DNA of 64,000 nucleotides. Origin: Molanna angustata. Lineage: Eukaryota; Arthropoda; Insecta; Trichoptera; Molannidae. Made by a program: the position numbers and the translations under genes. Positions 1-45,900 of the stretch are shown here, piece after piece. Below the pieces are notes generated by a model. The model saw nothing but the letters and a program-made list of their open reading frames with translations, ran no database searches and had not been told where the DNA came from. The DNA is taken from assembly GCA_963576475.1 (NCBI GenBank), contig OY754981.1, positions 14,312,216 through 14,376,215 of the forward strand, given 5' to 3'. Position 1 is the stretch's first letter. The number at the start of each line of letters is the position of its first letter.

Positions 1-599
1 TGGTATTATTTACTTATTGTTAATTTCTATTTATTTACTAAAATCCTTTTTTTTTTTCAAGTATCACAATAACAATTAACATAATATAACTTTCTACCGT
101 AGTAAATAAAATTATAAGTTATACTATAATTTAAAAAAGGTTAAAGTATGTCGTAAGTGTATACATTTATACCTATATTTTAATTTGTGGATTAGGCTAC
201 TCTACTAGGCTATGTAAGCCGGTCCCAGAGTAACGTTAGGTATATAAATCAGTCCTATTATTTCAATTCGTCTTGGTGTTAGTTAATTTTGTAAGATTTT
301 GTGGTAGGTTGCAGTAATTTAGATGTGCGTATGTATGAAGTATGTATTTATTTTTGTGTTGAAAAAAATTAATGCCAGAATAATTACCGTCCTACTGCTT
401 GATACCGTCGTAGGAAAATTTGTAGGTAATTTTGTAACAGAACGGTGTATGACAGAGTTCAGAACGAAGATACAAGGAAAGAAAGTAAGATACCGAAAGA
501 TGTAATTAACAGAATTAAAGTTAACACATTTAGATGGGTTGGCACGACCATGTAGACGATATTTTTAAAGATGAAAGTGCAAGAAACGTGAACCACAGA

Positions 600-746
600 C
601 GAACATGTCTCCGACGATGTATGAATGTTGCTGAGGCGATGAATGTGTGTCAAGGTGGAAAAATGCGGCGTTCGGTTCTCTTTGCCTACCCCGTGAGGGC
701 CATGGCGTGTTGGTCTGTAAGTATGTACGTAGGTATGTATGTATAG
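600..746 (+). repeat. non-LTR retrotransposon 3' end embedded in the LTR
   Basis: The stretch resembles copies at 42543-42651 (+), 19125-19200 (-) and 56817-56885 (+). They share the core GTTCGGTTCTCT, then TACCCCGTGAGGG, and end in a GTATG microsatellite. One frame reads like the C-terminus of an RTE-like ORF. The same segment sits at 12671-12817 in the other LTR, so it was in the LTR before this insertion event. Confidence 0.5.
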
Positions 747-1852
747 TTAAAAGTTAAAATTCGTCTGTGTATACATGCTAAGTCCTTTTTTTATTCGTAT
801 AATTTTCATAGTCCTAGAACGTCGCTATTAATTTGGTCTCTCTTGAATCGAGGTTTTTGTGAATATCCTGGGATATTATTCTAGGTATGCAGCTTGGTAC
901 TTTCGGACCGGGTCGTAGGTACCCGCGCGAAAAAAAAACATCGATACATGTCGGTATTCTGAGGATGATTTAGATATTAAACCTAGGGTCGTGATCTTTT
1001 CGACTGTAGTTTTTTTTTCTTTTGTTTTTATTTTTTCGTAGTGCGAAGAATAGGTTGAGTTAAATTTCTATTTCACTCGTTACTGGGTCTTAACCTTCTA
1101 GTGTTAGGTCATTATTACCGGGAGGTTTTTTTTTTTTATTTTATTCATGCTCTCATTTCCTTCCTGGGTTATTTAATCATTCGATTCTTTATTTATTTAT
1201 TTGTTTATCGAGCCGTTTATCCTCTGAAATGGTTGTCTACCCCTTCCTACGTTTGCTTATTTCTTCGTATCTCTTTTCTTGATTGCGTTAGTTATTTATT
1301 TACGTATTTATTCCCCTATACCTATCTGTAAATTTTCTTTCAGCATCACTCTGTTGGTTTACTTACGTGTTTATTTCTACATTCACGTAATTGGCTTACT
1401 CCCCAGCTCATTAATTTATTTATTTTTGTTTACTGTTAAATATGTAGGTCTTGTTTCCCGAAATTAAAATAATTAAATAAATCAATCAATTTTCCTGTTT
1501 TCTATCTCCTTTCGGTCCGCAACGATTCGACAGTGGGTAAGCCCTGGCTACCCCTACTTATATTTCCTTGTCTGGTCTCATTCAAATTTATGCGTCCTAC
1601 CCTATGAACCTACTTATGAACTTGATACCTTGGGGTGGTCTAGTGATATAGTGACCGAACACAGTCTGGACCCACATGCGTTCCCACGAACTAGATTTGC
1701 CGGGCCACATCGCCGTCCGTCTAATTTCTGATTTATCGTATCCGTTAGAGCGGCTCGCGAAATCTGACACCTTTCTCCAACGGACATTCCAGTGGCGTAA
1801 CTAGCTCTACCTACTTGGTCGTTTGATGTTGTTCAATACGAAACATCTCTGT

Positions 1853-2129
1853 GTTTTCTCAAACCAAAATTAAAAATACCGAAAATATTTTTATTATTCA
1901 CGGTGAGCTTGTCTGTTGATTTCTTATTTATGCCGCCAAATTATAACTTTTGGGTAATTAAATTATTTACCGATTAATTATTTACTTATTGTTTTCTCAA
2001 ACCAAAATTAAAAATACCGAAATTATTTTTATTATTCACGGTGAGCTTGTCTGTTGATTTCCTATTTATGCCGCCAAATTATAACTTATGGGTAATTAAA
2101 TTATTTACCGATTAATTATTTACTTATTG
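1853..2129. repeat. 138-bp tandem duplication inside the LTR
   Basis: Two head-to-tail copies begin with GTTTTCTCAAACC at 1853 and 1991 and differ at only a few bases. The same duplication is present in the other LTR at 13924-14200, so it predates this insertion. It may be a duplicated enhancer-like U3 block, but that is inference. Confidence 0.8.
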
Positions 2130-2542
2130 TCATTTCGTTAATTAATTACACTAATTAGCTATATCCCATTCTATTGAATAGGATCCAGCGATTACTAGCA
2201 ATTTCTTCTGAAAGCATTTTCCTATGTCAGAAGCAAATTTTTTTTTTTTTCTTAAGACTTGTTCCCGCTTCTATTTTTCTGATTACCCACAATATTTCGG
2301 TACGCCCATGTCGCATTTCGATGTCTCGACCGTTGGCGTGTTCCCATGGACCAGCCAAGATATCCATATGTGTCAATTATAAGTTATTGCGTCCTGCCTG
2401 GCACTTCCTTGCGACCGACAAGGTTCTCCGGGGCTAAACCAACATACCACCTACGCAGGATTCTGCGAAATATGCACGTCTGTAGTGTCTGAGACCCGAC
2501 GCGTGATTTTGTTCAAATACCTATCCATGTTGGATATATCAA

Positions 2543-2559
2543 ACCACCCCATCCTTCTT
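2543..2559 (-). other. polypurine tract of the gypsy-type element
   Basis: Read on the minus strand, the bases directly upstream of the 3' LTR are AAGAAGGATGGGGTGGT, almost all purine, followed by the LTR start TGATATATCC. A polypurine tract primes plus-strand DNA synthesis in LTR elements. Its position supports both the minus-strand orientation and the LTR border at 2541/2542. Confidence 0.7.
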
Positions 2560-4929: not shown

Positions 4930-7230
4930 TCAACGCCGATTTATGACTCTTCGCATGTCATCTGCGTGTACCTTGGTCGGCTTACTTCGCCGATCTATCC
5001 AATACGTGTGCCCTCGGCCAATGACAGTGAGAACGGTATAAGGACCACTCCATTTTGCGGCGAAACCGGCGTGAAAGCCTCTTGCTGCGTCTGACTGTGG
5101 GTGTTCCCGAACCCATACTTTCTCACCTGGACCGAATGTCGATCCTTCCTCCCCTGGAGTCAGGTACCTTCCGCGGTACTCAGCTTGCTTTCTCACTATT
5201 TCCTCATCAGCGGAGCGCCTGTCTCTTGCTTCCGTTGCTGATGGTACGATATCTTCGTTGGAATGTACCAACCACTCTCCTGGTCGTGGTAGGTCGTATC
5301 CTAGTAAAGCCTGGCTGGGGGTCACGCCGGTAGCCTCATTCTGTCTTCCTCGCAAAGCACCGAGTATTGTCGGCAAGACGACGTCCCACCTCGTATGACT
5401 CCCCTCCTGCAAGTGAATCCTGAGAGCTTTCTTTATCTCTTGATTCCTTCGTTCAGCCGGATTGGCTCTGGGGTGATACGTGGCTGTGGTCCAGTGCACG
5501 CACTGCCACCTCTCTATAGCATCGTTCCATGTCCTGTGCGTAAATTGTCGACCGTTGTCAGTTAATACATACTTCGGGTACCCGTAACGGTTGAATACTT
5601 CCGATTCAAGTACTGTCGTGAGTGAGGTGGCCTTACTGGATCGCATGGGAAAGGCTTCCACCCACTTAGTAAATAGGTCCGTGACCACTAAAATATAACG
5701 GTTTCCCGCCGCGGAGGCTGGATACGGACCCATATAATCTACCGCTAATACTTCGAATGGTTTGGTTGCCCGGTGTCCTGTCTGATGGACTCGATGTAAG
5801 CCTGGTCGGGCTTTCGCCTGCATACACACGCCGCATGTCTTCACATGTCGTGCGACATCCGCCTTCAGTCCTGTCCAGTAATATAGTCTCTGAATGGCGC
5901 GCGTAGTCTCTTTCGTACCTGGGTGACTAGCTACCGGGTCGTCGTGATATTTCGTTATTACTTCCGCTATCTTCGCGCGGGGTACTACTAGCTTCGACTC
6001 TCCGCCTTCCTGCTTCCTCCACAGGGTTGTACCTAATACTTCGTAGGCGGCTTGCAGGTTCCTTTCAAAACGACTTCGTGCTCGGCTCGGCCGCGCCTGC
6101 ACTCGCCGTATCCTTTGCATTTTTTGATTAATATCTGCATCTCTACGCTGGCTAACTCGGATGTCCTCTGCTAGAGCCCACGCTCCGGCCTCTTGTTCGT
6201 CTTCCTGGTGAGAACGCATCTCTTCCTCACGTTCCTCCTCTTCTTCGTGCTCTCTGCGACCTTCCTGATCTCTGCGCCCTTCCTGATCTCTGCGCCCTTC
6301 ATCATCTCTGCGCCCTCCTTCATTTCTGCGCCCTTCGTGATCAATGCGCCCTTCGTGATCTCTGCGCCCTTCGTCATTTCTGTGCCCTTCGTCATTTCTG
6401 CGCCCTTCGTCATTTCTGCGCCCTTCGTCATTCCTGCGCCCTTCGTCATCTCTGCGCCTTTCGTCATTTCTGCGACCTTCGTCATTTCTGCGTCCTTCTT
6501 CGTTTCTGCGCCCTTCGCCATTTCTGCGCCCTCCTTCATTTCTGCGCCCTTTCTCGTTTCTGCGCCTTTCGTCATCTCTGCGCCCTTCCAGCGTTTCCAC
6601 TTCGCTAGCCATTGTGCTCGCGATACGCGCGACGTCTAACATATTAATATCTGGGAAAGTCTCTATATGTATATCTTGTTGCGGTCGGTTTGGTAGAAAA
6701 TGTATTGTTCTTCGTGACGGACAGCATATATGAAGACAGCCTCTGTGGAAGTCTGTCACTCCTTTGTGTTTAACGAGCCATTCATGGCCAAGTATCACGT
6801 CTTCTCTTAGTCCTGGGACAATTAGGAAAGTATCTGTCAAGACATGGGCGGCTGAGGTCCATGTAATATCTGCCTCCCCGCTAATCTTCATCTCCACACT
6901 CGAGTGTGCGAGTCTTACAATTTTATCCGTACTGCGTCGTATTAAATGGCTAGGTACTAAGCTAGCATTCACTAAATTGTGCGTGCTCGCCGAATCTACT
7001 AGGACCGCGGTAGCGATACCTACTAGCTTAGCAGGTATACGTGATAATGGCCGTCTGTGAAGTCCCGTTACGTTGTTACATGCCCAACCCCTTCTATTGT
7101 TGTCGTTTCCAGTAATCGTGCGGTGGTGGTCTATTGTCATTGGGTCTGGCTGGTCGCGTTGACCACTCCCACTTAATGTCGGCGTGTCGCCTGAGCGTGG
7201 TTGGTTCCGCCCAGGCGGGAGGCGTTTCCC
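4930..7230 (-). CDS. pol: retropepsin plus integrase, no reverse transcriptase
   Basis: The pol frame is open from a stop at 7236-7234 down to 4930 and overlaps the end of gag in the -1 frame. Its first Met is at 7140, and the numbering that follows starts there (736 residues). Residues 40-130 are a retropepsin: active site VDSAST (D49, a variant of DTG/DSG) and the later motif VILGHEWL. Residues 186-299 are charged hexapeptide repeats. Residues 385-620 are a gypsy integrase with an HHCC zinc finger (H399, H406, C436, C439) and a D468, D528, E563 triad with canonical DD35E spacing. A GPY-type tail with KWSGPYTVL follows. No YxDD reverse transcriptase or RNase H is present, although a normal gypsy pol would carry over 400 residues of them between protease and integrase. 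The frame has no stops or frameshifts. Expression as a Gag-Pol fusion is inferred from the slippery site. Confidence 0.9.
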   Translation of the reverse strand, partial: GKRLPPGRNQPRSGDTPTLSGSGQRDQPDPMTIDHHRTITGNDNNRRGWACNNVTGLHRRPLSRIPAKLVGIATAVLVDSASTHNLVNASLVPSHLIRRSTDKIVRLAHSSVEMKISGEADITWTSAAHVLTDTFLIVPGLREDVILGHEWLVKHKGVTDFHRGCLHICCPSRRTIHFLPNRPQQDIHIETFPDINMLDVARIASTMASEVETLEGRRDDERRRNEKGRRNEGGRRNGEGRRNEEGRRNDEGRRNDERRRDDEGRRNDEGRRNDEGRRNDEGHRNDEGRRDHEGRIDHEGRRNEGGRRDDEGRRDQEGRRDQEGRREHEEEEEREEEMRSHQEDEQEAGAWALAEDIRVSQRRDADINQKMQRIRRVQARPSRARSRFERNLQAAYEVLGTTLWRKQEGGESKLVVPRAKIAEVITKYHDDPVASHPGTKETTRAIQRLYYWTGLKADVARHVKTCGVCMQAKARPGLHRVHQTGHRATKPFEVLAVDYMGPYPASAAGNRYILVVTDLFTKWVEAFPMRSSKATSLTTVLESEVFNRYGYPKYVLTDNGRQFTHRTWNDAIERWQCVHWTTATYHPRANPAERRNQEIKKALRIHLQEGSHTRWDVVLPTILGALRGRQNEATGVTPSQALLGYDLPRPGEWLVHSNEDIVPSATEARDRRSADEEIVRKQAEYRGRYLTPGEEGSTFGPGEKVWVREHPQSDAARGFHAGFAAKWSGPYTVLTVIGRGHTYWIDRRSKPTKVHADDMRRVINRR
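6244..6585 (-). repeat. 18-bp coding minisatellite, about 19 units
   Basis: Units of 18 bp encode the hexapeptide GRRNDE and variants such as GRRNEG, GRRDHE and GRRDQE. The array lies between protease and integrase, where reverse transcriptase and RNase H would normally be. It is in frame, and the 18-bp period keeps other frames open too, which creates spurious antisense ORFs. Arginine and acidic residues alternate, so a long charged helix or disordered linker is likely. Confidence 0.9.
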
Positions 7231-8132
7231 GCTCTAAAGGGTTGATAGGTAGGTCTGGGTCCGTTATTGTAATGTCTATTCCAATCGTGGTTCCCCGCGG
7301 GCCGCTGTCCATTTGGTACATAATTTCGTCCGCCGCCATTTTGTCGTAAGTCGGCTCGATGGTCGCCTTCAATATACCTCTCTGGCTCCGATTGGAAGCC
7401 ATTTGGACGATGTTGATGCTGCACTGACGGCATGTTCCACTGAACCCGTGTAGTGTTTGTATATAAAGGTTGCCGTGGGAAGTCTAGTCCCGAAACTCGA
7501 CTCCGCAGAGTGTCCATCGTATAGGGTCCGAAGGTCAGACCCACTTCTAGAAGTTCGCTGTACCTCGGGTGCATCAGGCCGATGAGATCCTGACAGATCT
7601 CGTTGATCTCTCCCTTCGGAAATAGTCTTCTGTATATTACATTTTTCCTCTGAAGGAAACAAATACCACTTTCGCCCTCTCGCTGTCGATCTCCATACAG
7701 GCTCACCAGCAGCGAGGCACGAGCTGCCTCTGTTCCATATCTGGACCGAAGAACGTTGCAGAAGTCCGCCCATCCCCAGCGTCCTTGCAAGTGAGGCCTC
7801 CACCAGTTCTTTGCTTCGCCTCTTAACCTCTGCGCTGCTCTCTCCACCTGCACGGCCGGGCTACAGTGTACAGCCTTGAAATGCGCTTCACAAGCGCGTA
7901 TGAATTGTTCAGGGTCTTCTTCGGCTAGACCGCTGAAGGTATCTTCCAGGACACGTGGTACGCATGCCCGCTCCCAAGTCCCAGACGGGGCCAAGGCGGC
8001 TCTCGCGGGCGAGCTATAATTTTGGCCTGCCTCTGCCTCTTCTTCGATCGGCATTGGTATAACCGGACTATTTTCTGCCGAACTCTCCATGTCTGACGCA
8101 CTATTTCCTCTCAACCGTCGCATATCTGTCAC
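7173..8132 (-). CDS. gag capsid polyprotein of gypsy-type element
   Basis: A 319-residue Gag of Ty3/gypsy type that would assemble the particle. The capsid core is recognisable by EDPEQFIRACEAHF near residue 75, a tryptophan-rich NWW segment, and LYGDRQREGESGICFLQRK near residue 145, which matches the region before the major homology-like part of arthropod gypsy Gags. The C-terminal 100 residues are rich in N, R, Q and P and have no CCHC zinc knuckle, so RNA binding probably uses this basic tail. The Met at 8132 is the first in the open frame. Pol follows in the -1 frame with a 61-bp overlap. No internal stops are present. Confidence 0.85.
   Translation of the reverse strand: MTDMRRLRGNSASDMESSAENSPVIPMPIEEEAEAGQNYSSPARAALAPSGTWERACVPRVLEDTFSGLAEEDPEQFIRACEAHFKAVHCSPAVQVERAAQRLRGEAKNWWRPHLQGRWGWADFCNVLRSRYGTEAARASLLVSLYGDRQREGESGICFLQRKNVIYRRLFPKGEINEICQDLIGLMHPRYSELLEVGLTFGPYTMDTLRSRVSGLDFPRQPLYTNTTRVQWNMPSVQHQHRPNGFQSEPERYIEGDHRADLRQNGGGRNYVPNGQRPAGNHDWNRHYNNGPRPTYQPFRAGNASRLGGTNHAQATRRH
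7224..7230 (-). promoter_or_regulatory. programmed -1 ribosomal frameshift heptamer GGGAAAC
   Basis: On the minus strand GGGAAAC is split as G GGA AAC in the gag frame, which is the canonical X XXY YYZ form. Slipping back one base enters the pol frame, which opens only a few bases upstream after a stop at 7236-7234. Five bases further on, CCGCCTGGGCGG can form a short GC hairpin, the usual stimulator. Gag-Pol at low ratio is the expected product. Confidence 0.8.
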
Positions 8133-9580
8133 TATCTCTATTTTCCTCTTAATATTTCGGTGTCCCGACTGCGTGACTGTTTAAGTGACCGCCCTTGAGA
8201 CGACTTTATCCTGTAACCGGCGCGGTGATCTCTTATTCAGTATTATCAAAAAAACATCGGTCAACGTTCCTAATTGAAAGAAAAAAAGTAATTTTCAAAG
8301 TTCCTAATTGAAACAAAAAAAAATTAAATTTTTTTTTCTTTTTATAATCACTATCGACCTTAAACGGTCTTTATCTATCTCCGTACGTAAAATAATTTCT
8401 CCGTAATTGGACTACTTATACCTAAAACCATCAAATATTAATTTATGTTAACTCACCGCTAATGAGTCTTAGAGTAGCAATCCTCTTCCGTATACATACA
8501 ATAAAATTTATATAAAAATTATATCCGTAATAGTTATATTCGTAAATGTATTAAAATATATTTGTACCTATCATTTTTTTTTTTTTTCCTTGGTAAATAT
8601 ATTCATAACCTTTTTGGTTTATTATCCTACCCCTAAGGAGAGACGAATATTTCTTCCTAAGCGAGTATTATGCTTCCCAAACGAAATTAGTCTATAATAT
8701 TAATTTACCCAACTCACCACTAACGATATTAATCTCGATTGAAAATAGCTATACCTACGAGAACAAAAAAAAATCGAGAACAAAAATTATCTATCTCCCC
8801 ACTACTGAGGACAAAATCCTGTTTCGTAATTAGCAGTTATCCTTATTATTTTATCATTAGCAGAAAAAACGTAATATTCCCAAAAAAAAATATTATAACG
8901 GCCTAATTATTCATTGCCAAGCGAGTTTCCCTATCTACTCATCGAGACGCTTATTATATAAAAAAGAATTATTCCCGTCGTCCAAGCGATTTCTTACTGA
9001 TGTATATACCTATTCTATCAATTCAGATACCTATAGTCGATCAGTCAATTACCTACTAATTAAAACGTTACGAGTGTCGATGATAAAGATTTAACTACCA
9101 AATACAAAAATTATAAGGTCACCAGCTTCGGTGATTAGTCAAATGATATAAGGATCACCAGATTCGGTGGTTCAAGACATACAAATAAAAATATTACCTA
9201 CCAAAATTGTAAAGTAATAGGTAAAACTAGTGTTGGGTAATTGTTTAGATATTAATATTTCTTTCTCTATCTCTCCCCTACAACCCTTCTGAAGCCTCGA
9301 GTTATTTTATCCTAAATTCGTGGGTACGTGTTTTTTTTGTTTTCTTAGCAATTATTTTCGTAAGTGAACAAACTTAAGTTTCTTTCGACTTAATCCGCGG
9401 AAGGTATTTTTCGATTAATATCTGGTTGGATTATTAATGGGATTCCAACTGGAATCTCTATTTTCCAATAAGAAAATCAAAAATCGCGAAATTTCAACGA
9501 TTAATTATAGTTTTTTTAATAACGATTAATTTCTTTATTTTATTAGATATAATTCGCGGAGAAGTCGCTTAAGCTGCCTT
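8133..9580 (-). other. 5' leader of gypsy-type element
   Basis: About 1.45 kb lies between the primer binding site and the gag Met. It is AT-rich, with runs of T/A and no open frame worth calling. Packaging and dimerisation signals would be expected here but cannot be pinned down. Confidence 0.5.
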
Positions 9581-9595
9581 CAACGTTGGGCGCCA
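9581..9595 (-). other. primer binding site, tRNA-Lys type
   Basis: On the minus strand this reads TGGCGCCCAACGTTG. The first 13 bases are complementary to the 3' end of a lysine tRNA of the type ending ACGTTGGGCGCCA. It marks the inner border of the 5' LTR, so the LTR runs from 14616 to about 9596 and is about 5 kb long. The LTR end itself is not a clean CA here, so the exact border may be off by a few bases. Confidence 0.8.
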
Positions 9596-10851
9596 TTTAA
9601 TACACCGGGGGGAGTTTAAAAGAGGGAGAGTGGGAAGGTCGGAAGGTGTTGCGAGGTTGTTGATAATTATTTGAATATTATTTGAAAATGAAAGTTGGGT
9701 ATTGGTTTTGTCGGGAACTATTTTCTTATTCAGTGCTCACACTGAGGTGGCACTAGAGTATCGGCACAGCCGATTTCGACGACTTGCTAGGCTCAGGGCG
9801 GTAGCCGCCCTTCGCCGCCCACTAGTTGGTTTGCCCGGCCAGCTATCGGGTGCAAGCCGTCGCTGTGATTCCTCCCCGGGAATTAAAACTTAAATTAAAC
9901 CTTAAAATTACCTAATTACTAACTATAATTAAAAACAGGCTTCAGATTGGGATTGTATATGAGAGAGAAGAAAAAAAATCAATTCAGTTAACTAAAATTT
10001 ACTAGCATCTAGGCACACAAAGACATTACAAGCTAAAGAAACAATGTTTTCTAAATACTAGGACTTATACTAAGATCTTAACGTATACTTAAAACTATGT
10101 GTGTGCACACAACAAAACACGAAGGGAGTCTTTGAAAAAAAAAAGAACGTTGAGAACGTCGAAGTGTGAAGAAACGAAAATTAGAACAGGGCAGTATTGG
10201 CCTCCTGTGAGGCGATGGCTGGTGATCCTCGTGGGCGGCCTCTCCAGAGGCGGCGATAATGATCCTCGAATAATTGCCTCCTACCACAGAGGCGGCGTGG
10301 ATGTCTCCTGGGTAGGGCCTCTTTTCCAAAAGAAGCGCTTGCCGTTGTCTTCTTGGCAGGGCGAAAAAAAAAAATGGCCCTCCAATTGAGTGGAGTATAA
10401 TGGACTCAGTGGACATACAAAATAATGTGAAATAAAACCTGGTAGGTTGGCCTCTCTCCGTCCGCGGGACCTCGCCAGAGCGAGTCTGTAGTAGACCGTA
10501 ACGACCGCGTATGCCCTGATATAAATTTTAATGTTTGAAATGGGCTCCTTCCTTGCTGGTCTGATTCACTGGTTTATAGTAAAGTACTTTGTAAAATTTT
10601 ATTTGCTATGCGTCCACGACGGTTGGGTAGAATCGTTGGTACTTGGTCTAGCTGGCGAGACCCGCGAACAAGAGAGAAGACTGTTACTGTTGCGATGACG
10701 AAATCGGAATGCTCCAGATCATCCCGTGCGGTCGCTAATATTGACCGGCGGCATCTCGTCCCGCAAGCCCCTCCCCCCTAGTTCCTCGGCTGTCCCTGTG
10801 TTCCCGTACGGACGCACTGATTTTTCGCGCCAAAGTTCACGCACTATGTTT

Positions 10852-10937
10852 TCTTTTTTTTAATTTTCGTTACACATACACTTTTTCTTTTTTTTCTTTT
10901 TAATTTTCGTTACACATACACTTTTTCTTTTTTTTCA
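10852..10937. repeat. 40-bp tandem duplication in the LTR
   Basis: Two copies of TAATTTTCGTTACACATACA start at 10861 and 10901 and are separated by T/C runs. Confidence 0.75.
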
Positions 10938-12670
10938 TCTTATACACTTATACACTTCTTATGGACTATTTACATGATCAGAGCAACATAACATTATAAT
11001 TTCTCCATACAGAAATGTGTGCCTATAGGTAGGTATTTCCAACCCTGATTAACTATATTACCCAACACACAAAATTATTTAGACAATGATATGTTGTAGG
11101 GACATAAAATTATGGTACTTCCCAACAACTATTTTATTCTCCTTGACAATAGCATTATTTTATTTCAATTTTATTGACAAAAATCATTATTTTATTCCTT
11201 TCTTTTCGCCCTACCAATCCTAACTATGTTACATAAATTAATATAAGTTCCCGTAGGTACATTTTCTTTTTATAAAACAACTCATTCTTATTACCTCGAT
11301 GACTGCCATAATTTTCTTCGAAGCTTGGAGAAAAAGAATCGAATTTTCTCAAGGAGAAAATCATTTTCCTATCTTTATCGCTATTCGCCCTCTGTATGTC
11401 GAGACGCGAAGCTTTTCCCTGCGCCCCAAGCTTACTAACCTCAGCTAAACGATCTGCATCAGAGTCCCGAACCAAAGCGCGAAAGTATCCCCTACGGACG
11501 TAAATCAACTTATTGTACTTCAATTTTCTTCCCTTTTATTATTATTAATTTAATATTCTCCCCTCGCGCCAATTTCCTCCCCTTTCAGATTTTCCTCGGC
11601 TTATTTTTTTTCGTGCCATCTATAGAGTTTCGCGCGCTGTCTCTGACCTATGACAGTCGGTCGAGCAGAGCGCTTCCCGAAGCTGATCGAATTTTTCGCT
11701 AGATGTCTCCCCTAGTATTGAAACGAAAGCTCTCGTCTCCTCTGAGCGGCTGGCGCATATTTAAAATACCTATTTAAAAACCACCTTATTATACTGATAA
11801 TAACCAGAATGGAAACCTCCGCTGTCCGTAACCACCAACTTATTTTATTTTATTTTAATTAAGTCAGCTCAGACACAGGCATGAATGCCCAAATATTTCT
11901 GCGCATAATAGCTTATAGCCTATATGGGAAGTACATACGATCAGATAATCACCTATCACCTGATCTCGGATATGGGTTATATAAGAATTTCATAACCGCG
12001 TCGAGGGAGAATTCCGGCGTTCGGTTCTCCCTGCCTACCCAAGGTAACGCAATGACCGTCATGGTATCGCCTGGTATTATTTACTTATTGTTAATTTCTA
12101 TTTATTTACTAAAATCCTTTTTTTTTTTCAAGTATCACAATAACAATTAACATAATATAACTTTCTACCGTAGTAAATAAAATTATAAGTTATACTATAA
12201 TTTAAAAAAGGTTAAAGTATGTCGTAAGTGTATACATTTATACCTATATTTTAATTTGTGGATTAGGCTACTCTACTAGGCTATGTAAGCCGGTCCCAGA
12301 GTAACGTTAGGTATATAAATCAGTCCTATTATTTCAATTCGTCTTGGTGTTAGTTAATTTTGTAAGATTTTGTGGTAGGTTGCAGTAATTTAGATGTGCG
12401 TATGTATGAAGTATGTATTTATTTTTGTGTTGAAAAAAATTAATGCCAGAATAATTACCGTCCTACTGCTTGATACCGTCGTAGGAAAATTTGTAGGTAA
12501 TTTTGTAACAGAACGGTGTATGACAGAGTTCAGAACGAAGATACAAGGAAAGAAAGTAAGATACCGAAAGATGTAATTAACAGAATTAAAGTTAACACAT
12601 TTAGATGGGTTGGCACGACCATGTAGACGATATTTTTAAAGATGAAAGTGCAAGAAACGTGAACCACAGA

Positions 12671-12817
12671 CGAACATGTCTCCGACGATGTATGAATGTT
12701 GCTGAGGCGATGAATGTGTGTCAAGGTGGAAAAATGCGGCGTTCGGTTCTCTTTGCCTACCCCGTGAGGGCCATGGCGTGTTGGTCTGTAAGTATGTACG
12801 TAGGTATGTATGTATAG
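12671..12817 (+). repeat. non-LTR 3' end embedded in the second LTR
   Basis: Second copy of the segment described at 600-746, in the same relative place in the LTR. Confidence 0.5.
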
Positions 12818-13923
12818 TTAAAAGTTAAAATTCGTCTGTGTATACATGCTAAGTCCTTTTTTTATTCGTATAATTTTCATAGTCCTAGAACGTCGCTATT
12901 AATTTGGTCTCTCTTGAATCGAGGTTTTTGTGAATATCCTGGGATATTATTCTAGGTATGCAGCTTGGTACTTTCGGACCGGGTCGTAGGTACCCGCGCG
13001 AAAAAAAAACATCGATACATGTCGGTATTCTGAGGATGATTTAGATATTAAACCTAGGGTCGTGATCTTTTCGACTGTAGTTTTTTTTCTTTTGTTTTTA
13101 TTTTTTCGTAGTGCGAAGAATAGGTTGAGTTAAATTTCTATTTCACTCGTTACTGGGTCTTAACCTTCTAGTGTTAGGTCATTATTACCGGGAGGTTTTT
13201 TTTTTTTATTTTATTCATGCTCTCATTTCCTTCCTGGGTTATTTAATCATTCGATTCTTTATTTATTTATTTGTTTATCGAGCCGTTTATCCTCTGAAAT
13301 GGTTGTCTACCCCTTCCTACGTTTGCTTATTTCTTCGTATCTCTTTTCTTGATTGCGTTAGTTATTTATTTACGTATTTATTCCCCTATACCTATCTGTA
13401 AATTTTCTTTCAGCATCACTCTGTTGGTTTACTTACGTGTTTATTTCTACATTCACGTAATTGGCTTACTCCCCAGCTCATTAATTTATTTATTTTTGTT
13501 TACTGTTAAATATGTAGGTCTTGTTTCCCGAAATTAAAATAATTAAATAAATCAATCAATTTTCCTGTTTTCTATCTCCTTTCGGTCCGCAACGATTCGA
13601 CAGTGGGTAAGCCCTGGCTACCCCTACTTATATTTCCTTGTCTGGTCTCATTCAAATTTATGCGTCCTACCCTATGAACCTACTTATGAACTTGATACCT
13701 TGGGGTGGTCTAGTGATATAGTGACCGAACACAGTCTGGACCCACATGCGTTCCCACGAACTAGATTTGCCGGGCCACATCGCCGTCCGTCTAATTTCTG
13801 ATTTATCGTATCCGTTAGAGCGGCTCGCGAAATCTGACACCTTTCTCCAACGGACATTCCAGTGGCGTAACTAGCTCTACCTACTTGGTCGTTTGATGTT
13901 GTTCAATACGAAACATCTCTGTG

Positions 13924-14200
13924 TTTTCTCAAACCAAAATTAAAAATACCGAAAATATTTTTATTATTCACGGTGAGCTTGTCTGTTGATTTCTTATTTA
14001 TGCCGCCAAATTATAACTTTTGGGTAATTAAATTATTTACCGATTAATTATTTACTTATTGTTTTCTCAAACCAAAATTAAAAATACCGAAATTATTTTT
14101 ATTATTCACGGTGAGCTTGTCTGTTGATTTCCTATTTATGCCGCCAAATTATAACTTATGGGTAATTAAATTATTTACCGATTAATTATTTACTTATTGT
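13924..14200. repeat. 138-bp tandem duplication in the 5' LTR
   Basis: Counterpart of the duplication at 1853-2129, with matching internal differences. Confidence 0.8.
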
Positions 14201-14616
14201 CATTTCGTTAATTATCACCCGACACTAATTAGCTATATCCCATTCTATTGAATAGGATCCAGCGATTACTAGCAATTTCTTCTGAAAGCATTTTCCTATG
14301 TCAGAAGCAATTTTTTTTTTTTTTCTTAAGACTTGTTCCCGCTTCTATTTTTCTGATTACCCACAATATTTCGGTACGCCCATGTCGCATTTCGATGTCT
14401 CGACCGTTGGCGTGTTCCCATGGACCAGCCAAGATATCCATATGTGTCAATTATAAGTTATTGCGTCCTGCCTGGCACTTCCTTGCGACCGACAAGGTTC
14501 TCCGGGGCTAAACCAACATACCACCTACGCAGGATTCTGCGAAATATGCACGTCTGTAGTGTCTGAGACCCGACGCGTGATTTTGTTCAAATACCTATCC
14601 ATGTTGGATATATCAA

Positions 14617-33373: not shown

Positions 33374-36300
33374 TTATTGCTTGGCTGCGAGGAGCCCAAG
33401 ATCGGCAATGCACTTGTTCAAGGTTTCTTTCTCCTGTTCGGGAGTGATGGACTTCAGCACATTGGACACAATCCAACTGACCATGTGTTTCTGAGAAATA
33501 CGACGATCTACATTCTCCTTTTCTACTTGATAGTCCAGACGACGTTTAACCTGGAAAAAATGCACACTGAATAAGAAAAAAAATAACCAAAATGTCTCTT
33601 AACTTTAAATTTATTTTCAAAGAAGTAGGTCACATTATGGGGTATGCCGTAGTGGTATGAATGAATGAAAAAAAGTAGCATCTCAGTATACAATAATGTA
33701 TACAGTTTTCTTGTATTTTGAATAAATTTTAAGTAACACATCTGACTTATTTAAAGTAACATTTTTTTTTTGGCGAGTTCATGAAGAAGAATTTAAGAAA
33801 ATGTCATATTTCCAAAAATAAAAAATGATACTAGGTATCTTTTAATCAAATAAAAATGATAATATTTCTACATTTATATTTTCCTTATAATAGGACGACC
33901 ATTTCGGCTGGCTAGGCCCTTATCAACCAGTTGATATCGTCCTATTATAAGGGAAATATATATGTAGAAACATTCATTTTTGTTTGATTAAAAAATACCT
34001 AGTGTAATGGAGTTCTACACATTAAACACCGTCAGTATTGACAAATTAAAAAATATTAATTTGATAACACAATGTGTGTTGTTTCAAAGACCAGTCTGTT
34101 GATAAGGGCCTATTCAGCCGAAATGGTCGTCCTATTATAAGGGAAATATATATCTAGAAACATAATCATTTTTGTTTGATTAAAAAATACCTACGGCCGC
34201 TTTCTCCAAGGTCCCTCAAAATCGAACATCAGCTAAGTACCCATTCGAAACTTAAATCCTTAAGTGGCTTACTTAATAAATTTGCATTTCACCAACAAAT
34301 AACAGCCACACTAAGCTAAGGTCAGGATTAGTTTTTGTTATGTTTCCGGTGAACATGAATATGGACTCAAGATAACGTTACTTTAAAAAATATGCAAATA
34401 AGAAATATATAATAAACTATAAAAATATCATTAAAATATTCTAACGTGTGAATTTCACGATTTTTACTCTATATATAAATTAATTATAAAAAAAGTACTA
34501 CTTTGATCTCATGAGTACAGGTAATTGCCGCTGGCGCCAACAGATGGCGCTAGCGGCGCTCGCTGTCAGGGTAGCCTTGTTTGTACACCAGTTTTTGTTT
34601 TTGACACATCATGTACAGACAGTTTATTTAGTATTCACACCAATTTAGTTATTTTATTTTAATATTTGTTACTTTTTTTTAATATACAATGCAACTGGCT
34701 CATGCCAGCCGCAATTATAACTACAGACAAACCTAACCAATCTATTTTTACCAAACTTTTGTAGGTTTGGTTAAAAAAATCGGTGTACATCCTAGGATAT
34801 ACTCGCTGTCATGGCTGTTTATTCGCTTTGCACTTGTTGATTGTTGAGATTGTTCGACACGGGACGCGCATATTTATCAGAGTATAATTATGGATAAACC
34901 AAATAAACGTTCTACAAATTTTACCCCCAATGAAAAAACTAAATTAATTGAATTAGTTTCAAAAAACACGGCAATTACTTCAAAACAAACGGATGGAGCA
35001 TGTCTATTCAACGATCTCACGAATCCAGCCATCTTCCAAGATGATAATAAACAAAATATAACTTAAATTTTACAACAAAAAAAAGATAAATTCAATAATA
35101 AAACAACTCTGCGACGAAATCGTAACCCAAATATCTATCTGTCAAACGCGTTAAGTGACGGTTATGACGGTTAATACACTAGAGACCGCCACTTAAAATT
35201 TTATGCGCCGACGTCGCTAAGCGAGGCTAAGATTGTTTGGTGAAATGCAATTTTGCGCTAAGTGGTTCATAAATGTGATTTTTTAAGTTAAGGAGCCTTG
35301 GGGAAATCGGGCACTAGTGTAATGGAGTTCTACGTATTAAACACTGTCAGTATTGACAAATTAAAAAATATAAAAAATTATAATTCGATAAGGGTGAAAT
35401 CATATTTGACATAAAATGTACTATGTTATTTTATTTATTTTACATTACTTCTCGGGCAATCAACAGTTCAAATATTAATTTAACACGCACCCAATAGCAA
35501 TTTGCCACATTCTGGAGACTTACGATATTAATCATCTCACAGATCCAGACTGAAAACACAATTAAAAACTGAGTCTCCACCGGGAATCGAACCTGGGACC
35601 CTTGGATCAGCAGTGAGATACCTTACCAATTGAGGTCTCATGACAAAAACGTAACGTTTTGTAACTTGGCCACATGACCACAACATGTGTGAAAGTAAAG
35701 TATCCTTATATTGTTGACATCTTCTATAAGGGCCAATATGTAGTGGTGTCATTTTTAGATTGCAGTGACCAGTAAATAAACTGTCGTATTCAGCTTATAT
35801 TGCTAGATAATCCCATCTACTTAATGCACATTGTTGTCAGGAGGAAATAGTCTCTGTGGATCCTACAAACAGCCAGAATCCATCGAGTACTGCACTACCA
35901 AAGACATTAATATACAAATCAAAAGGAAACAAATGATTAATTACCTCTTGGTATGCATGGTAAAGTCTCTCTCTGTAGGAGGCCTCCAGCTGTAGTAAAA
36001 TATTCTCTTTCTTGGCTTCCATAAGCAACTCGTTACCCTCAGCTCTCCACTGCTCCTTCTTTTCCATCTCAATGGAATCAACCAGGACTTTACGAGTCTC
36101 GTCACGGCTTTCATTCAATGAATTTTCATATGCCTGTTGAATTATTTTTTGATTAAGTTCAATTTGATTCAACTGAATTTCATGAACAACAAACAATATG
36201 ACAAGTACTTTCCAAAAATTATACAAAAGCTAAAAGGTTATATGTGCACTAATTGTGGAAAAAAAAAATTTTTTGTGTATCTCGCTAACAGTGACACCAA

Positions 36301-39991: not shown

Positions 39992-42900
39992 ATGGGATTA
40001 TGTAGTTCTTGTTTAAAAGGATCCACTACGGATACACTTATGCCAGACGTGGTAAATAGTAATTCTTTATTAATATTAGCAGGTATGCAATGTCTTAATC
40101 GATAATATCAAATTCTATCAAGTTGGTGATTTTGACATTTCGTCTTGTCGCTGTTTTCGTGTTCGTATTTATTGATTTTTAGTTTAAACCCGGGAAAACA
40201 CTCGGGGTATGTAAAACGGTGTATTTATATGGTATTGAATACAAAAATTAACAGTAAATATCTTAGTATTTGCTTGCCGTTCGAGACTTTTTATTTGATT
40301 CTTTTATTGTTTGGTTTTTGAGGGGTGAAAATGATCACTTTTATTTATCTGAAGGTAAGGATGTTGAAAAATATACTCGTATATAGTCTGGTGTTTACTA
40401 TTTACGTATGTCTTTTATCAGTATAATATTTTTCTTTTCATATAACCTTGCCTAAGTTATTGCATTCTAATGTTGGTTTATATTTAAAAAAGAGGTGCAT
40501 TGTGTACTTTTGTTAAAAATATTGAATGTAAACATTGTTTATGAGTTATCCGGGAACTTTCCACTCCATATTGATTTTCTAGGGTGCATGTAGGTAGCTA
40601 TTGATGTAATTTATATAGATGAAAATGACATTCTATATGCAATTGTGGGTGGTGAGGAGTGAAGGTTGGGAGGCTGGTATTGCACTGATCTACAGCCCAG
40701 TCCGGAACTCACCCAGCTCAATCCGATACATACATTTACAACGGGTACATCTCTTGTGTGGAACAACATAATAATTCAATTACATTATGTTTGTATTATT
40801 TATAATGATTCTTGTGGCTGCAACTGTTGCTGAGTGTGTCAAGAACATGAGGTAATAATGTTATGTCAACATCTAAATACAAAACATATTGTTATTGGAA
40901 AATTTACCAAACAAAGAAAGATGCTATTTATATTATTCAAAACATTACAAGTATCTATTCCTTTGTTTTTCTTCGCTCTCATTTATTTTTTTTGTTGGTA
41001 TTTCTTTGTAATATTTTAAGTATGTAAAAAAATATCAAATTGTTATATTAAATGTTTGTGAATACTTATATTCATTCTTTTTACATTATTTACTTAAATA
41101 GTACTTTAAATACAACTTTGTTTTACACAATAATGTGTTTTTTTTTATCAAAACTAAAAACATTGAATATAATTTTATAAACAAACTAGATAATGGATAA
41201 TAATTCATAGTAGGTATGAACTTTTTTTATAAATATGTTTATATTCATGGTTAACCATAATATATTTTTCTGTGTAAAAATATATCCTTTTTGTCTAACA
41301 TATTGTGCATCTGATTAAATTATTGCACACATACTGCGTAGCATCAGAAGGATAGGTCAGTATGGTGGTATGAGGAGTGGGTGTATTATGGGGAGGTGTT
41401 TGTTGGCAATCAAGGTCTGAGGGTGATAGATAATAGGTTGATGAGGGAGAAGGGAGAAACAAGTTGTAGAATTTTGTTTGAAATCAACAAAATGGGTGGT
41501 GGGTGTTGATGAATACCTCATTAAATGTTGAAATTGGATTCCAGAGCTGTGACTGGTATTAAATTACATTTGTGTATTATATTTTTTCTCAGTTATAAAT
41601 TCATACAATGTACTTATATCCTGATACTTCATACAATGTACTTATATCCTGATACTTGTATCATAAATTTTTCAAACAAATATTTTTTTTCTCATAACAA
41701 AAGAATATTTTTCATTGAGAGACATTGTATATTTTTAAAATCAATAAAGATACAGTAAAGATTTTTTTATCTCAAAAGATACGTCTTTGAAATAAAAAAA
41801 AACCTTTTGTATATAAATCTTTATTCTATTGTATGAGTTTTTTTGAAATTTGAATTTGTTTAATAATTTTCTTGTAAAATTTGTTTTAGTAAAAACCTTT
41901 TTTTAATTTTTTATTGTACATATTAAAAAACTACAAGGCCTATGAAGTAGATTTTTATTTCAATCAAAAGAGAATATTATGAAAATCTACCGGCTGAGTT
42001 TTTTATTATTATATTTTTTTAGTTACTATTCTTGCTGTTTAAAAAACCTCTAAATTTAACTTTTTACAATACAATATTTTTATATTGTATATCACAGATT
42101 AGGTGATACACAATATTCTTTCGTGTTTCATACATTAGAAGGTAATTTAGTGTGCATTTTTGTGTACATCCGTATGACCAGGGTATACAAGGGCCTTAAA
42201 TAATAATAAGCACTTCCTTGCACCCTGCTCAAGTGGCGAGTTTATTGCCATATGGTAATTTCTTCCAACTTACCAGTGTTACCAGCCTAGAGAAACAATA
42301 TTTTCGTGAGAAATAGATTTAAATAAATTTCTCCTCCGCTGGGGATTGGTTTCAGGACGCCTGCACAGAAACCAGATGGCTTACCAGGGTAATTTATAAT
42401 TAAAATTACATTGAAGTCTGGATCTCTGGACTAGGAATTCATATTATAGATAATATCTATGATTAAATGTAAAAAATATATATTATAATTATAAATATAT
42501 ATGTACCTATGATAATAATTCTTTAATTCAGAACAGTACAAAGCCATGAATGTTGACGAGGCGATGAATGTGTGTCAGGATAGAAAGATATGGCGTTCGG
42601 TTTTCTCTGCCTAATCCGTGAGGGACATGGCGTGATGGTATGTATGTATGTACAAAGCTATAAGAATAAATACAAAAATATGAACAAAATAATATATATT
42701 TAAATACAGCTTATTTCATTTCTTTTTTTTGTATTCATAATTATTTTTAAAAAAGCCTATTGGCTCATGATTATAATTAACAGTTCACATTGCAATATGG
42801 TAGTCATTCATGTACAACAACACTTTACTTCTTGATACAAAGTTTAGTTTTCGATTCCCATTAGAATGCCTTTTCGTTCATAATTTTTAGTTGTATTCTC

Positions 42901-45900
42901 TGACTGTGGCGATGCTATACACCACAATGAAAACGTCATTCGTCGGATAGTCTCGCATCTCATTTGTATTAACGAAGATGGCTGAAAGACGTCAGTTCCT
43001 GAACCGAATATGCAGCGCGGCTCGCCGTTCGCATATCAGCTGACAGGACGACAACAGTGTTAACTCTTTAACTTCTTCTTCTTCCTTTTCATAGATCCGA
43101 AGATCTGTTTGTACCGCTATTCTGTCTCCTGCGATGTGGACTGCCAACTGTCTCGCCATCTCTTTGGAGGTCTTCCTGGTGGTCTTCTTCCAGCTGGGTT
43201 CTCCTGGAGAGCGATACGTGGGAGTCTATTTTCAGCCATTCTGTTTACATGTGAGCTCCAATATCGCCTCCGCTGTCTTCCCCATCTGACGATGTCCTCC
43301 GTACTACACTTTTTTTTTATTTCGGTATTTCGAATTCGGTCTCTTAGAGTGTTTCCGGTTATACATCGCAATGTCCTCATCTCTGATGTTCTCAGAAGAG
43401 ATTTTGTTCTCGTTGTGTCTGCTCTGGTCTCTACTCCGTAGGTGGCAATGGGTCTTACACATGTTTTATATATTCGGACTTTGCTTTCGATATTCATGTG
43501 TTTATTCCTCCATATACTTTCCTTTAGACATCCTGATATTGCAGCTGCTTTATTTACTTGTCTTAATGTTTCGTCGTATAGACTACCGCTGCTAGTGATG
43601 TCTATTCCCAGGTATTTAAAGTCCATCACTTGCTCTATTATGTTATTTTCTACGACTAATTTGCATCTCAAAGGGTTCTTGCTTATCGTGAGACACTTTG
43701 TTTTGTCTGTAGATATCATCATATTATATTTAAGTGATGTATGATTTAGTTTGTATAGCATCCTTTGAAGGTCATCTTCTGATTCTGCGATAAGTACCGC
43801 ATCGTCGGCGTAGCATACTATACTGACTCTTTTACCTCCCATTCGGTACCCAAGGTTTAGGTCTACAACTTCTTCGATCAGTTTGTCCATTATTAAGTTG
43901 AATAGGAATGGACTTAGACTATCGCCTTGTCTTATTCCGATTGGAGTTGGGACTGGATTGGTGAGGTCGCCCTGTGTTTTTATTCTAGTAAAGCTGTCGG
44001 TATTCAATCCTTGGATTATTTTTACTATGTTGGAGGGAGTATTCTTTGCATTGAGTATTTCTATTATGTCCTCCAGTCTGACTCTGTCAAATGCCTTGGT
44101 GAGGTCGACGAAGCACATATATGCAGCCTTATTATATTCTATTGATTTTTCAGCGATCTGTCGAACGACAAATCGTTTGGTTCTGATTATGCTCTTATAC
44201 TCTTTAACTTTACGCGTAAAATTAATATCGACCCAAACATCGCGAACATCTCTAAATTTATCAAGTATAATATTGTAACTTATTTAAACTGAAAATTGAT
44301 GTAAATATCGTAAGTCCTCTTTTATTATGAAGCCCTTCGAACTCAATAACTATTTCTATTTCTACTAATTATCTGATTATCAAATTGCAATATCTTATAT
44401 AGTGATGTATGTTATTGGGAAGTAATTTGAACACATACTTAAAAACGCAGTATCTGATATATTATATTCTCAATTAAATAACCACCCCAATAGCATCCAT
44501 TCCTATAATTGGTGACCCCGATGTGATGCTATACACCACATGGCAATTTATTAAAGTCGCACTGAGTTACACAGTCCTTTGCACATTACTTTTTCGTGTC
44601 TGATTTTTTTGTAGTTTTCTCAGTTTCAAAGTAATTTAATATACATGTGTTGTAGTTGCGGATTTGTGTTCTCTACTTAAGTCTTAAGTTCAGGGTCTTC
44701 TATTTTTATTTTGTGTATTAGTTTTAATGTTAAAAGAATTTATATATTTATTATTCTTTTAAAATTGTTTTATGTATAGTTAAAACTTCTGAGACTTTTC
44801 TAAGCTGTGAGCTTGGATTTTGTTTTACTTAGCTAGCCTAGCCTGGGAACCCTCCCTTTTCATTGAGTTATTTGATGAAACCAGTTTCGAAACGACTGCT
44901 TGTGCAGGGCGGATGAAAATTTTGTTTGATTATTGTAGATATGTTATGTTGTGATCATTTCTGTGTGATATTTTAAAACTTTGGGCTGCATTATTTATTT
45001 CAGAAGACATTATAAATGTTTTTATTTCAGGAGACCCGCCGCAGGAGGCAGATGGAGGCAGCAGAGAAACGACGCCAGGAAAATGAAAGTCGAGGGATAC
45101 AGAACTTGGAGAAACTAAAGAGACAACAGCAGAGACAGCAAGAAATGGAGCACAGGCAAGAAGAAGCCATGAAGCAACAGACGTCTCAACCCACTCTTAA
45201 AGTATTATTATTTTTATTATGATAAACTTTCCTTATTGTATATTATGAATCTCCATTTTTGCTAATCCTCGTCTCACGTACTAAAGTGAACATATTCTTA
45301 AATTTAAAATTAGTCAATCTTCAATTATTTGAAAAATTAATTTGCAAATATATGTTGTTTGTTTTACTATCCTCTACCTACCGCAATGAAAATATTTATT
45401 TTGAGTCTGTTTTAACATTTGATTTGTTTTTTAATATCCCCATTTTTCCTTTTCCCAATAATAACTTTGCCTTGCTAAGTATCATCAATCATCAAAGCCT
45501 GCATTTTTTGCTGGTTACAAAGCATTGTAAGCTTTTTGTTTTTAATTCTACTCTATTCTTTGTTAAATATACTTAATGGAATTCTGCTAGTAAGAATCAA
45601 TATCACATGTATTACATAAGTATACTACAATTCAATCATTTTCCGTGTTGTTTGTATCTGACGTACTATCGTCTGAAGAGCATAATAGATCATGAAGTAA
45701 ATGTCCACATAAGAGCAGCGCATCAGACAGATTTTAGTATTCTATATAGGAAGTCATGTGCGCACATTGGATTGTCAGCAATAACGACATTGTTATGTAC
45801 TATAAAATATGCGATACATCTGCTGCACCTCTATGCCACACTAAGTTTTACAGTGCAAAGACATAATCAACCCTACTCCCAACTAATAATAATCATACTC

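What the first reader, a model, noticed from the sequence alone, without database searches (positions are those of the whole stretch)
4930..8132. Intact Gag-protease-integrase element with no reverse transcriptase
The pol frame is unbroken and carries retropepsin (D49) and a complete integrase (HHCC; D468/D528/E563 with DD35E spacing; GPY-type tail), yet the RT and RNase H that should lie between them are absent. The join is a coding minisatellite, and gag and the frameshift signal are intact. This suggests a semi-autonomous lineage that makes particles and integrates but borrows RT from a partner. Most non-autonomous LTR elements lose coding capacity altogether, so keeping exactly this subset under frame constraint is unusual.
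Basis: partly seen in the sequence, partly recalled or inferred. Interest (0 to 1): 0.9.

Follow-up and report, generated by a model that had tools for sequence, protein, structure and literature searches.

The report
RT-less retrotransposon carried by its sister
A jumping gene in this genome lost only its copying enzyme, yet it has still spread, very probably by sharing particles with almost identical copies that kept the enzyme, which makes it a natural case for asking which proteins such an element must make for itself.

Summary
In detail: the window holds a young Ty3/Gypsy element (about 17.1 kb, 5.0-kb LTRs) with open gag and pro-int frames, a good -1 frameshift signal, protease and integrase motifs, and no RT or RNase H. 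It is no isolated wreck: the same 1,464-nt in-frame deletion, with one identical junction, is found at 21 places, and nine of 12 RT-less insertions tested have perfect 4-bp target duplications. The family has 23 further integrase copies without that junction, 16 of them with full-length open pol; one was read through RT and RNase H, about 98% identical. The RT-less form is best seen as one deletion allele in a recombining pool. Differentiation from RT-bearing copies is 0.62 next to the junction and about zero in most of gag and in integrase; the window copy's gag is identical to that of two RT-bearing copies. This suggests shared particles, RT in trans and template switching. Frame constraint is only partly borne out: private variants look neutral in gag (9N:2S) and protease (8N:2S), weakly constrained in integrase (12N:11S, p 0.034). 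It works like mouse IAP 1Δ1 or wheat Sabrina_SA, but loses only RT/RNase H: a new variant of a known kind.

The parts
9598..14615 (-). 5' LTR, 5,018 bp (TGATATATCC...CGGTGTATTA)
   Evidence: LTR ends fixed from 5' and 3' flanks of other copies
9577..9595 (-). Primer binding site TGGCGCCCAACGTTGAAGG, 2 nt after the LTR; tRNA-Lys type (recalled, not tested)
   Evidence: read from sequence
7173..8123 (-). gag ORF from its first Met; capsid region Arc-like
   Evidence: Pfam Retrotrans_gag 1.9e-4, below its cut-off; PDB Arc 6gse E 5e-9
7224..7230 (-). -1 frameshift heptamer G GGA AAC in gag phase
   Evidence: present with the 5' stem arm in 34 of 34 copies examined
7188..7217 (-). 10-bp stem-loop 6 nt downstream of the heptamer
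   Evidence: RNA fold of 89 nt -31.9 kcal/mol, z -3.4; 3' arm exact in 33 of 34 copies
4930..7233 (-). pro-int ORF, 767 aa, no RT or RNase H
6994..6996 (-). retropepsin catalytic Asp (DSA motif, residue 80)
   Evidence: DSA in 33 of 33 aligned copies
6623..6624 (-). deletion junction: 1,464 nt (488 codons) absent relative to the RT-bearing copy L009; 1-nt microhomology
   Evidence: 21 genome places
6253..6588 (-). 18-bp coding minisatellite, charged linker; also in the two RT-bearing copies read
5806..5985 (-). integrase H2C2 zinc-binding domain
   Evidence: Pfam 2.2e-16
5470..5766 (-). integrase catalytic core D499/D559/E594 (DD34E)
   Evidence: Pfam rve 5.5e-14; aligned to PFV and Ty3 integrase structures; invariant in 23 of 23 copies
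5038..5046 (-). GPY motif of the integrase C-terminal region (KWSGPY; name recalled)
2542..2559 (-). polypurine tract next to the 3' LTR
   Evidence: sequence
1..2541 (-). 3' LTR, part inside the window; it continues to G000:C17:14309742
   Evidence: 99.69% identical to the 5' LTR over 2,545 columns, 3 mismatches, 3 gaps

Best explanation
It is a non-autonomous deletion form of a recently active Ty3/Gypsy family. One in-frame deletion removed RT and RNase H from pol. The form then spread because its RNA, and perhaps its Gag-Pro-IN proteins, enter the same particles as those of nearly identical RT-bearing copies, whose RT copies both RNAs (inferred). Template switching in mixed particles keeps moving the deletion between gag and integrase backgrounds (inferred from mosaic haplotypes), so the two forms are alleles of one recombining pool. 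Shown: one shared junction, many independent recent insertions, RT-bearing partners, mosaic haplotypes. Inferred: particle sharing, RT in trans, and that its proteins are made and work. The open frames are explained mainly by youth and by recombination with RT-bearing copies; selection for its own integrase is possible but weakly supported. The first two rivals below are readings of what its proteins do, within this explanation, not alternatives to it.
For: One junction in 18 of 18 RT-less copies read, of 21, and at 21 genome places, control 0. Nine of 12 insertions tested have perfect 4-bp target duplications, mostly differing between loci. LTR pairs are 99.86-100% identical in 12 of 14 copies with an alignable pair, of 17 tried. 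The RT-bearing copy L009 is 98.4-98.8% identical in its two main aligned blocks, with RT and RNase H where the deletion lies. Thirteen of 14 other such copies run on past the deletion's upstream edge, and 0 of 14 have the junction. Differentiation between the forms is 0.62 next to the junction, about 0 in distal gag and integrase. The window copy's gag has 0 of 888 differences from two RT-bearing copies, while its protease has 1 difference from RT-less copies d2-d7 and 8 from those two. Frameshift heptamer (34 of 34) and catalytic residues (33 of 33, 23 of 23) are kept in the copies examined.
Against: No expression, particle or transposition data exist here. Gene conversion after insertion could also make mosaics. 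RT was shown by Pfam in one partner copy only; in the others it is inferred from frame length. The family count rests on searches that call themselves lower bounds. The window copy's own target duplication has a mismatch (acct/aact). No search for other deletion forms (copies without integrase) was answered, as the genome search stayed busy.
Confidence: 0.82

Rival explanations
1. Semi-autonomous element: its own Gag, protease and integrase are needed in cis and kept by purifying selection, with only RT borrowed.
For: Frames open in 13 of 21 RT-less copies against 16 of 23 copies without the junction, Fisher p 0.75. Integrase private variants 12N:11S, omega about 0.44, p 0.034. Integrase bit scores against the C24 copy span the same range in 17 RT-less (948.2-955) and 16 RT-bearing (948.5-955) copies.
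Against: Private gag 9N:2S and protease 8N:2S, with protease non-singletons 6N:0S, show no constraint. No differentiation in most of gag or in integrase, so not a separate lineage. The integrase test used 7 of 16 open RT-bearing copies, so some 'private' variants may be shared ones, which are rich in synonymous changes; the bias is towards apparent constraint. Integrase against gag plus protease is not significantly different, p 0.06.
Confidence: 0.25
2. Pure passenger: none of its proteins matters. Any family RNA with the right ends is copied, and the frames are open only because the copies are young and recombine with RT-bearing ones.
For: Neutral-looking private variants in gag and protease; young LTR pairs; RT-less copies with broken frames exist.
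Against: Private integrase variants lean to constraint. No other successful deletion form was noticed among the 44 integrase copies, though that census cannot see copies without integrase.
Confidence: 0.45
3. Single dead deletion multiplied by segmental duplication or misassembly.
For: The C26 pair is in tandem with a shared LTR.
Against: Different flanks, and perfect target duplications at 9 of 12 insertions, on several contigs; LTR, coding and minisatellite variants between copies.
Confidence: 0.02

Closest known systems
Mouse IAP 1Δ1 subtype (PMC6466679, passages read)
   Same: Internal deletion derivative of an active family, keeps a coding frame, non-autonomous, needs proteins in trans, makes most new insertions; its fusion protein is reported to act in cis.
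   Different: 1Δ1 loses part of gag and pol and makes a gag-pol fusion; here gag, frameshift signal, protease and integrase are whole and only RT/RNase H is lost. Not of the same family (retrovirus-like ERV versus Ty3/Gypsy).
Wheat RLG_Sabrina_SA, called semi-autonomous (PMC9744471, passages read)
   Same: Gypsy element lacking RT, keeps an intact GAG-Pro frame, depends on an autonomous partner.
   Different: Sabrina also lacks integrase and has hardly any sequence homology with its proposed partner; here integrase is kept and the partner is about 98% identical and recombines with it.
Wheat RLG_Quinta with RLG_Cereba (PMC11302176, passages read)
   Same: Non-autonomous derivative of an autonomous Gypsy family with shared ends and primer site; keeps GAG.
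   Different: Quinta lost RT and integrase some 28-35 million years ago; here the loss is RT/RNase H only, with RT-less and RT-bearing copies still about 98% identical.

Membership tests
Ty3/Gypsy LTR retrotransposon | Two near-identical LTRs with PBS and PPT | tested here: met
   LTR 5,018 bp, 99.69% over 2,545 columns; PBS 9595-9577, PPT 2559-2542
Ty3/Gypsy LTR retrotransposon | Short target site duplication | tested here: met
   4 bp perfect in 9 of 12 insertions of the RT-less form; the window copy itself has acct/aact, one mismatch
Ty3/Gypsy LTR retrotransposon | pol order PR-RT-RH-IN | tested here: not met
   Window copy has PR-IN only; the RT-bearing copy L009 has RT at 284-445, RNase H 533-637, IN 959-1130. 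So the family is Ty3/Gypsy and the window copy is a deletion derivative
Ty3/Gypsy LTR retrotransposon | RT sequence nearest Ty3 | tested here: met
   RT-bearing copy L009: best PDB matches 4ol8 (named RT/RNase H, E 2.6e-75) and Ty3 7q5b (E 4.8e-75); clade not resolved
Non-autonomous element mobilised in trans | Repeated independent insertions without own RT | tested here: met
   21 junction places, target duplications at 9 of 12 insertions tested
Non-autonomous element mobilised in trans | Intact autonomous partner in the same genome with matching ends | tested here: met
   Partner copy on C24 aligns with the window element into both LTRs; 16 open full-length pol frames; activity not tested
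Semi-autonomous element (own proteins used) | Purifying selection on its own gag, PR and IN | tested here: inconclusive
   gag and PR private variants neutral, IN 12N:11S p 0.034
Semi-autonomous element (own proteins used) | Proteins shown to act in transposition | not testable with these tools
   needs bench work
TRIM/LARD (non-coding LTR elements; definition recalled) | No coding capacity | tested here: not met
   gag and pro-int frames open

The most novel reading that the evidence does not exclude
A division of labour inside one retroelement pool: RT-less genomes make Gag, protease and integrase but no RT, RT-bearing genomes make everything, and the two are kept near even numbers (21 with the junction, 23 without, both lower bounds) by frequency-dependent selection while recombining freely on both sides of the deletion. 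Integrase would be under cis selection while RT is a shared public good. This would be close to a two-allele, partly bipartite retrotransposon.
Probability: 0.12. Interest if true: 0.8.

Novelty: new variant of a known kind. Interest (0 to 1): 0.55.

Why it matters
Purifying selection within LTR element families implies that each copy uses mostly its own proteins, yet the life cycle makes it hard to see how (PMC9073684, abstract and discussion read). Here one enzyme must come from elsewhere while the others are still encoded, in two forms that differ by a single deletion and recombine on both sides of it. Comparing variants private to each form, gene by gene, lets cis preference be tested in nature. 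It also gives population-genetic evidence that non-autonomous and autonomous copies share particles.

Tried and rejected
Rejected: chimera of two families. The first tblastn list shows no protease match in RT-bearing copies and suggested this; reading one showed the protease is there, 98% alike. Rejected: a lone dead copy. Rejected: LTR of 2.5 kb ending in CA; comparison with other copies gave 5.0 kb. Rejected: CCCTTTA as the frameshift site, wrong phase. Rejected: pooled omega as proof of selection on RT-less copies, because shared variants drive it in gag.

Led nowhere: viral contig scan with the pol frame, no relative. Protein database switched off, queries not sent. Of the genome searches tried (pol, junction, intact boundary, RT, integrase, gag) only pol, junction and integrase were answered, so an intact-boundary count, an RT list, copies without integrase and solo LTRs were not obtained. 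The host was not identified; the clade within Ty3/Gypsy was not resolved. Eight literature searches ran (listings of titles and abstract starts, open-access library). None of the titles and abstract starts shown describes an LTR element that lost RT alone and kept integrase; the longer listings were capped (15 or 20 shown, of up to 163). A string test for the intact boundary was too strict (0 of 14); the printed tails show the boundary in 13 of 14 with small differences, and in one the anchor was not found.
Full report
What is there. The finding lies on the minus strand. Gag runs 8123-7173 and overlaps in the -1 frame with a 767-codon frame, 7233-4930. Pfam finds the integrase zinc domain and core above cut-off, protease and gag models below theirs, and no RT or RNase H. 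The integrase aligns with PFV and Ty3 integrase, gag with Arc capsids. The catalytic residues are D80 (DSA), D499, D559, E594; 34 residues separate the last two. The frameshift signal is G GGA AAC at 7230-7224 in the right phase, then 6 nt, then a 10-bp stem (-31.9 kcal/mol, z -3.4, 0 of 200 shuffles as good).

The whole element. Comparing copies showed that the LTR is 5,018 bp (14615-9598), with a PBS at 9595-9577 and a PPT at 2559-2542. The 3' LTR leaves the window at its left edge and ends at G000:C17:14309742; the total is 17,089 bp. The two LTRs differ by 3 mismatches and 3 gaps in the first 2,545 columns, none in the next 1,000 and 2 mismatches in the last 119; 1,355 bases between were not fetched.

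The family in its genome. The genome (995 Mb, 131 contigs, unnamed) holds 44 integrase copies at 96-100% identity among 101 matches scored (a lower bound); the other 57 belong to a family about 54% identical. Twenty-one of the 44 lie beside the RT-less junction, which a 36-base pattern with up to 3 mismatches finds at 21 places, 8 exact and 13 with one mismatch, control 0. The other 23 do not; 16 of them have open pol frames of 1,219-1,339 aa. One RT-bearing copy (L009/L010) was read: it matches the window element at 98.1-98.8% in its long aligned blocks outside the deletion and has RT and RNase H. A second (L011) has the same 1,309-aa frame length. For 14 more, the gag-protease piece was read: none has the junction and 13 run on past its upstream edge. 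The deletion is 1,464 nt, in frame, with one base of microhomology. All 18 RT-less copies read (of 21; the window and 17 fetched) have the same junction.

Movement. Nine of 12 insertions with both ends fetched have perfect 4-bp target duplications; two mismatch (window copy acct/aact, d16 ttat/aaat) and one 3' end was not recognised. The C26 pair is a tandem flanked by one duplication and counts once. LTR pairs could be aligned in 14 of 17 further copies: 12 at 99.86-100%, one at 99.63%, one at 98.7-98.8% (the tandem shares an LTR). Copies d4 to d7 (three loci) do not differ in gag, and both the gag-protease tree and the integrase tree put them at zero distance, so the form moved very recently, while the protease piece differs by up to 8 of 546 sites among RT-less copies: more than one round of copying.

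Recombination. Gag haplotypes are shared between the forms. The window copy has 0 of 888 gag differences from RT-bearing copies C16 and C12c, but its protease has 1 difference from RT-less copies d2-d7 and 8 from those two. Differentiation between forms in thirds: gag 0.195 (p 0.07), 0.04 (0.25), -0.03 (0.73); protease 0.29 (0.01), 0.42 and 0.62 (0 of 500 shuffles each) towards the junction; integrase -0.16, -0.21, -0.13 (p 0.7 or more). Left out: d5-d7 as near copies of d4 throughout; also d9, d10, d11, d18 for gag, d10 and d18 for protease, d18 for integrase; integrase has 7 RT-bearing copies. The simple reading is template switching in shared particles; gene conversion is not excluded.

Constraint. 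Thirteen of 21 RT-less copies have gag and the whole pro-int frame open, against 16 of 23 copies without the junction with gag, protease and full pol open, Fisher p 0.75. Gag of three RT-less copies and of the other seven was not fetched; their pol is broken or short. Pooled variants suggest constraint in gag (13N:11S, p 0.035) and integrase (12N:16S, p 0.0009), not protease (9N:5S, p 0.41). Splitting by class changes the picture. Private to RT-less: gag 9N:2S, protease 8N:2S, integrase 12N:11S (p 0.034). Private to RT-bearing: 7N:2S, 5N:2S, 3N:3S. Shared: 4N:9S, 1N:3S, 2N:6S. So older shared variants carry most of the signal; private gag and protease variants look neutral in both forms; integrase keeps a weak one, and the contrast integrase against gag plus protease falls short (p 0.06). 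Rows dropped: d9, d10, d11, d18 for gag, d10 and d18 for protease, d18 for integrase (one search dropped d10 for integrase too); the tandem pair d6/d7 and the identical d4/d5 were kept. RT-bearing rows: 16 for gag and protease, 7 for integrase, which biases integrase towards apparent constraint.

Comparison. The nearest working parallel is mouse IAP 1Δ1 (PMC6466679); the nearest in kind are wheat Sabrina_SA and Quinta. As described in the passages read, none of these keeps protease and integrase while losing RT/RNase H alone. Verdict: real, young, multi-copy and very probably dependent on its sister for RT; a new variant of a known kind, with a good natural test of cis preference.

Noticed in passing
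621-728 and 12692-12799, compared with 42546-42653: The LTR carries a stretch about 85% identical to sequence some 460 bp beyond the 3' end of a non-LTR RT ORF in the same window, as if it had captured LINE sequence.
   Followed up: no
43117-44283 (-): RT ORF of a non-LTR element, 388 aa, Pfam RVT_1 1.4e-27; element type judged from memory.
   Followed up: no
35837-36229 (-): ORF with a Pfam match to mitochondrial ATP synthase B chain (8.3e-12), probably an exon of a host gene.
   Followed up: no
G000:C26:1724793-1739031: Two RT-less copies in tandem about 11.9 kb apart sharing an LTR, the array flanked by one target duplication tatg.
   Followed up: partly
G000, for example C1:15827259-15828560: A second family, 57 of the 101 matches, many with 1,321-1,335-aa open pol frames, integrase 52-54% identical to this one.
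   Followed up: no
6253-6588: The charged minisatellite before integrase varies in length and stays in frame: linker 136-214 aa in 18 RT-less copies, 202 aa in the two RT-bearing copies read; the spread of RT-bearing frame lengths probably has the same cause.
   Followed up: partly
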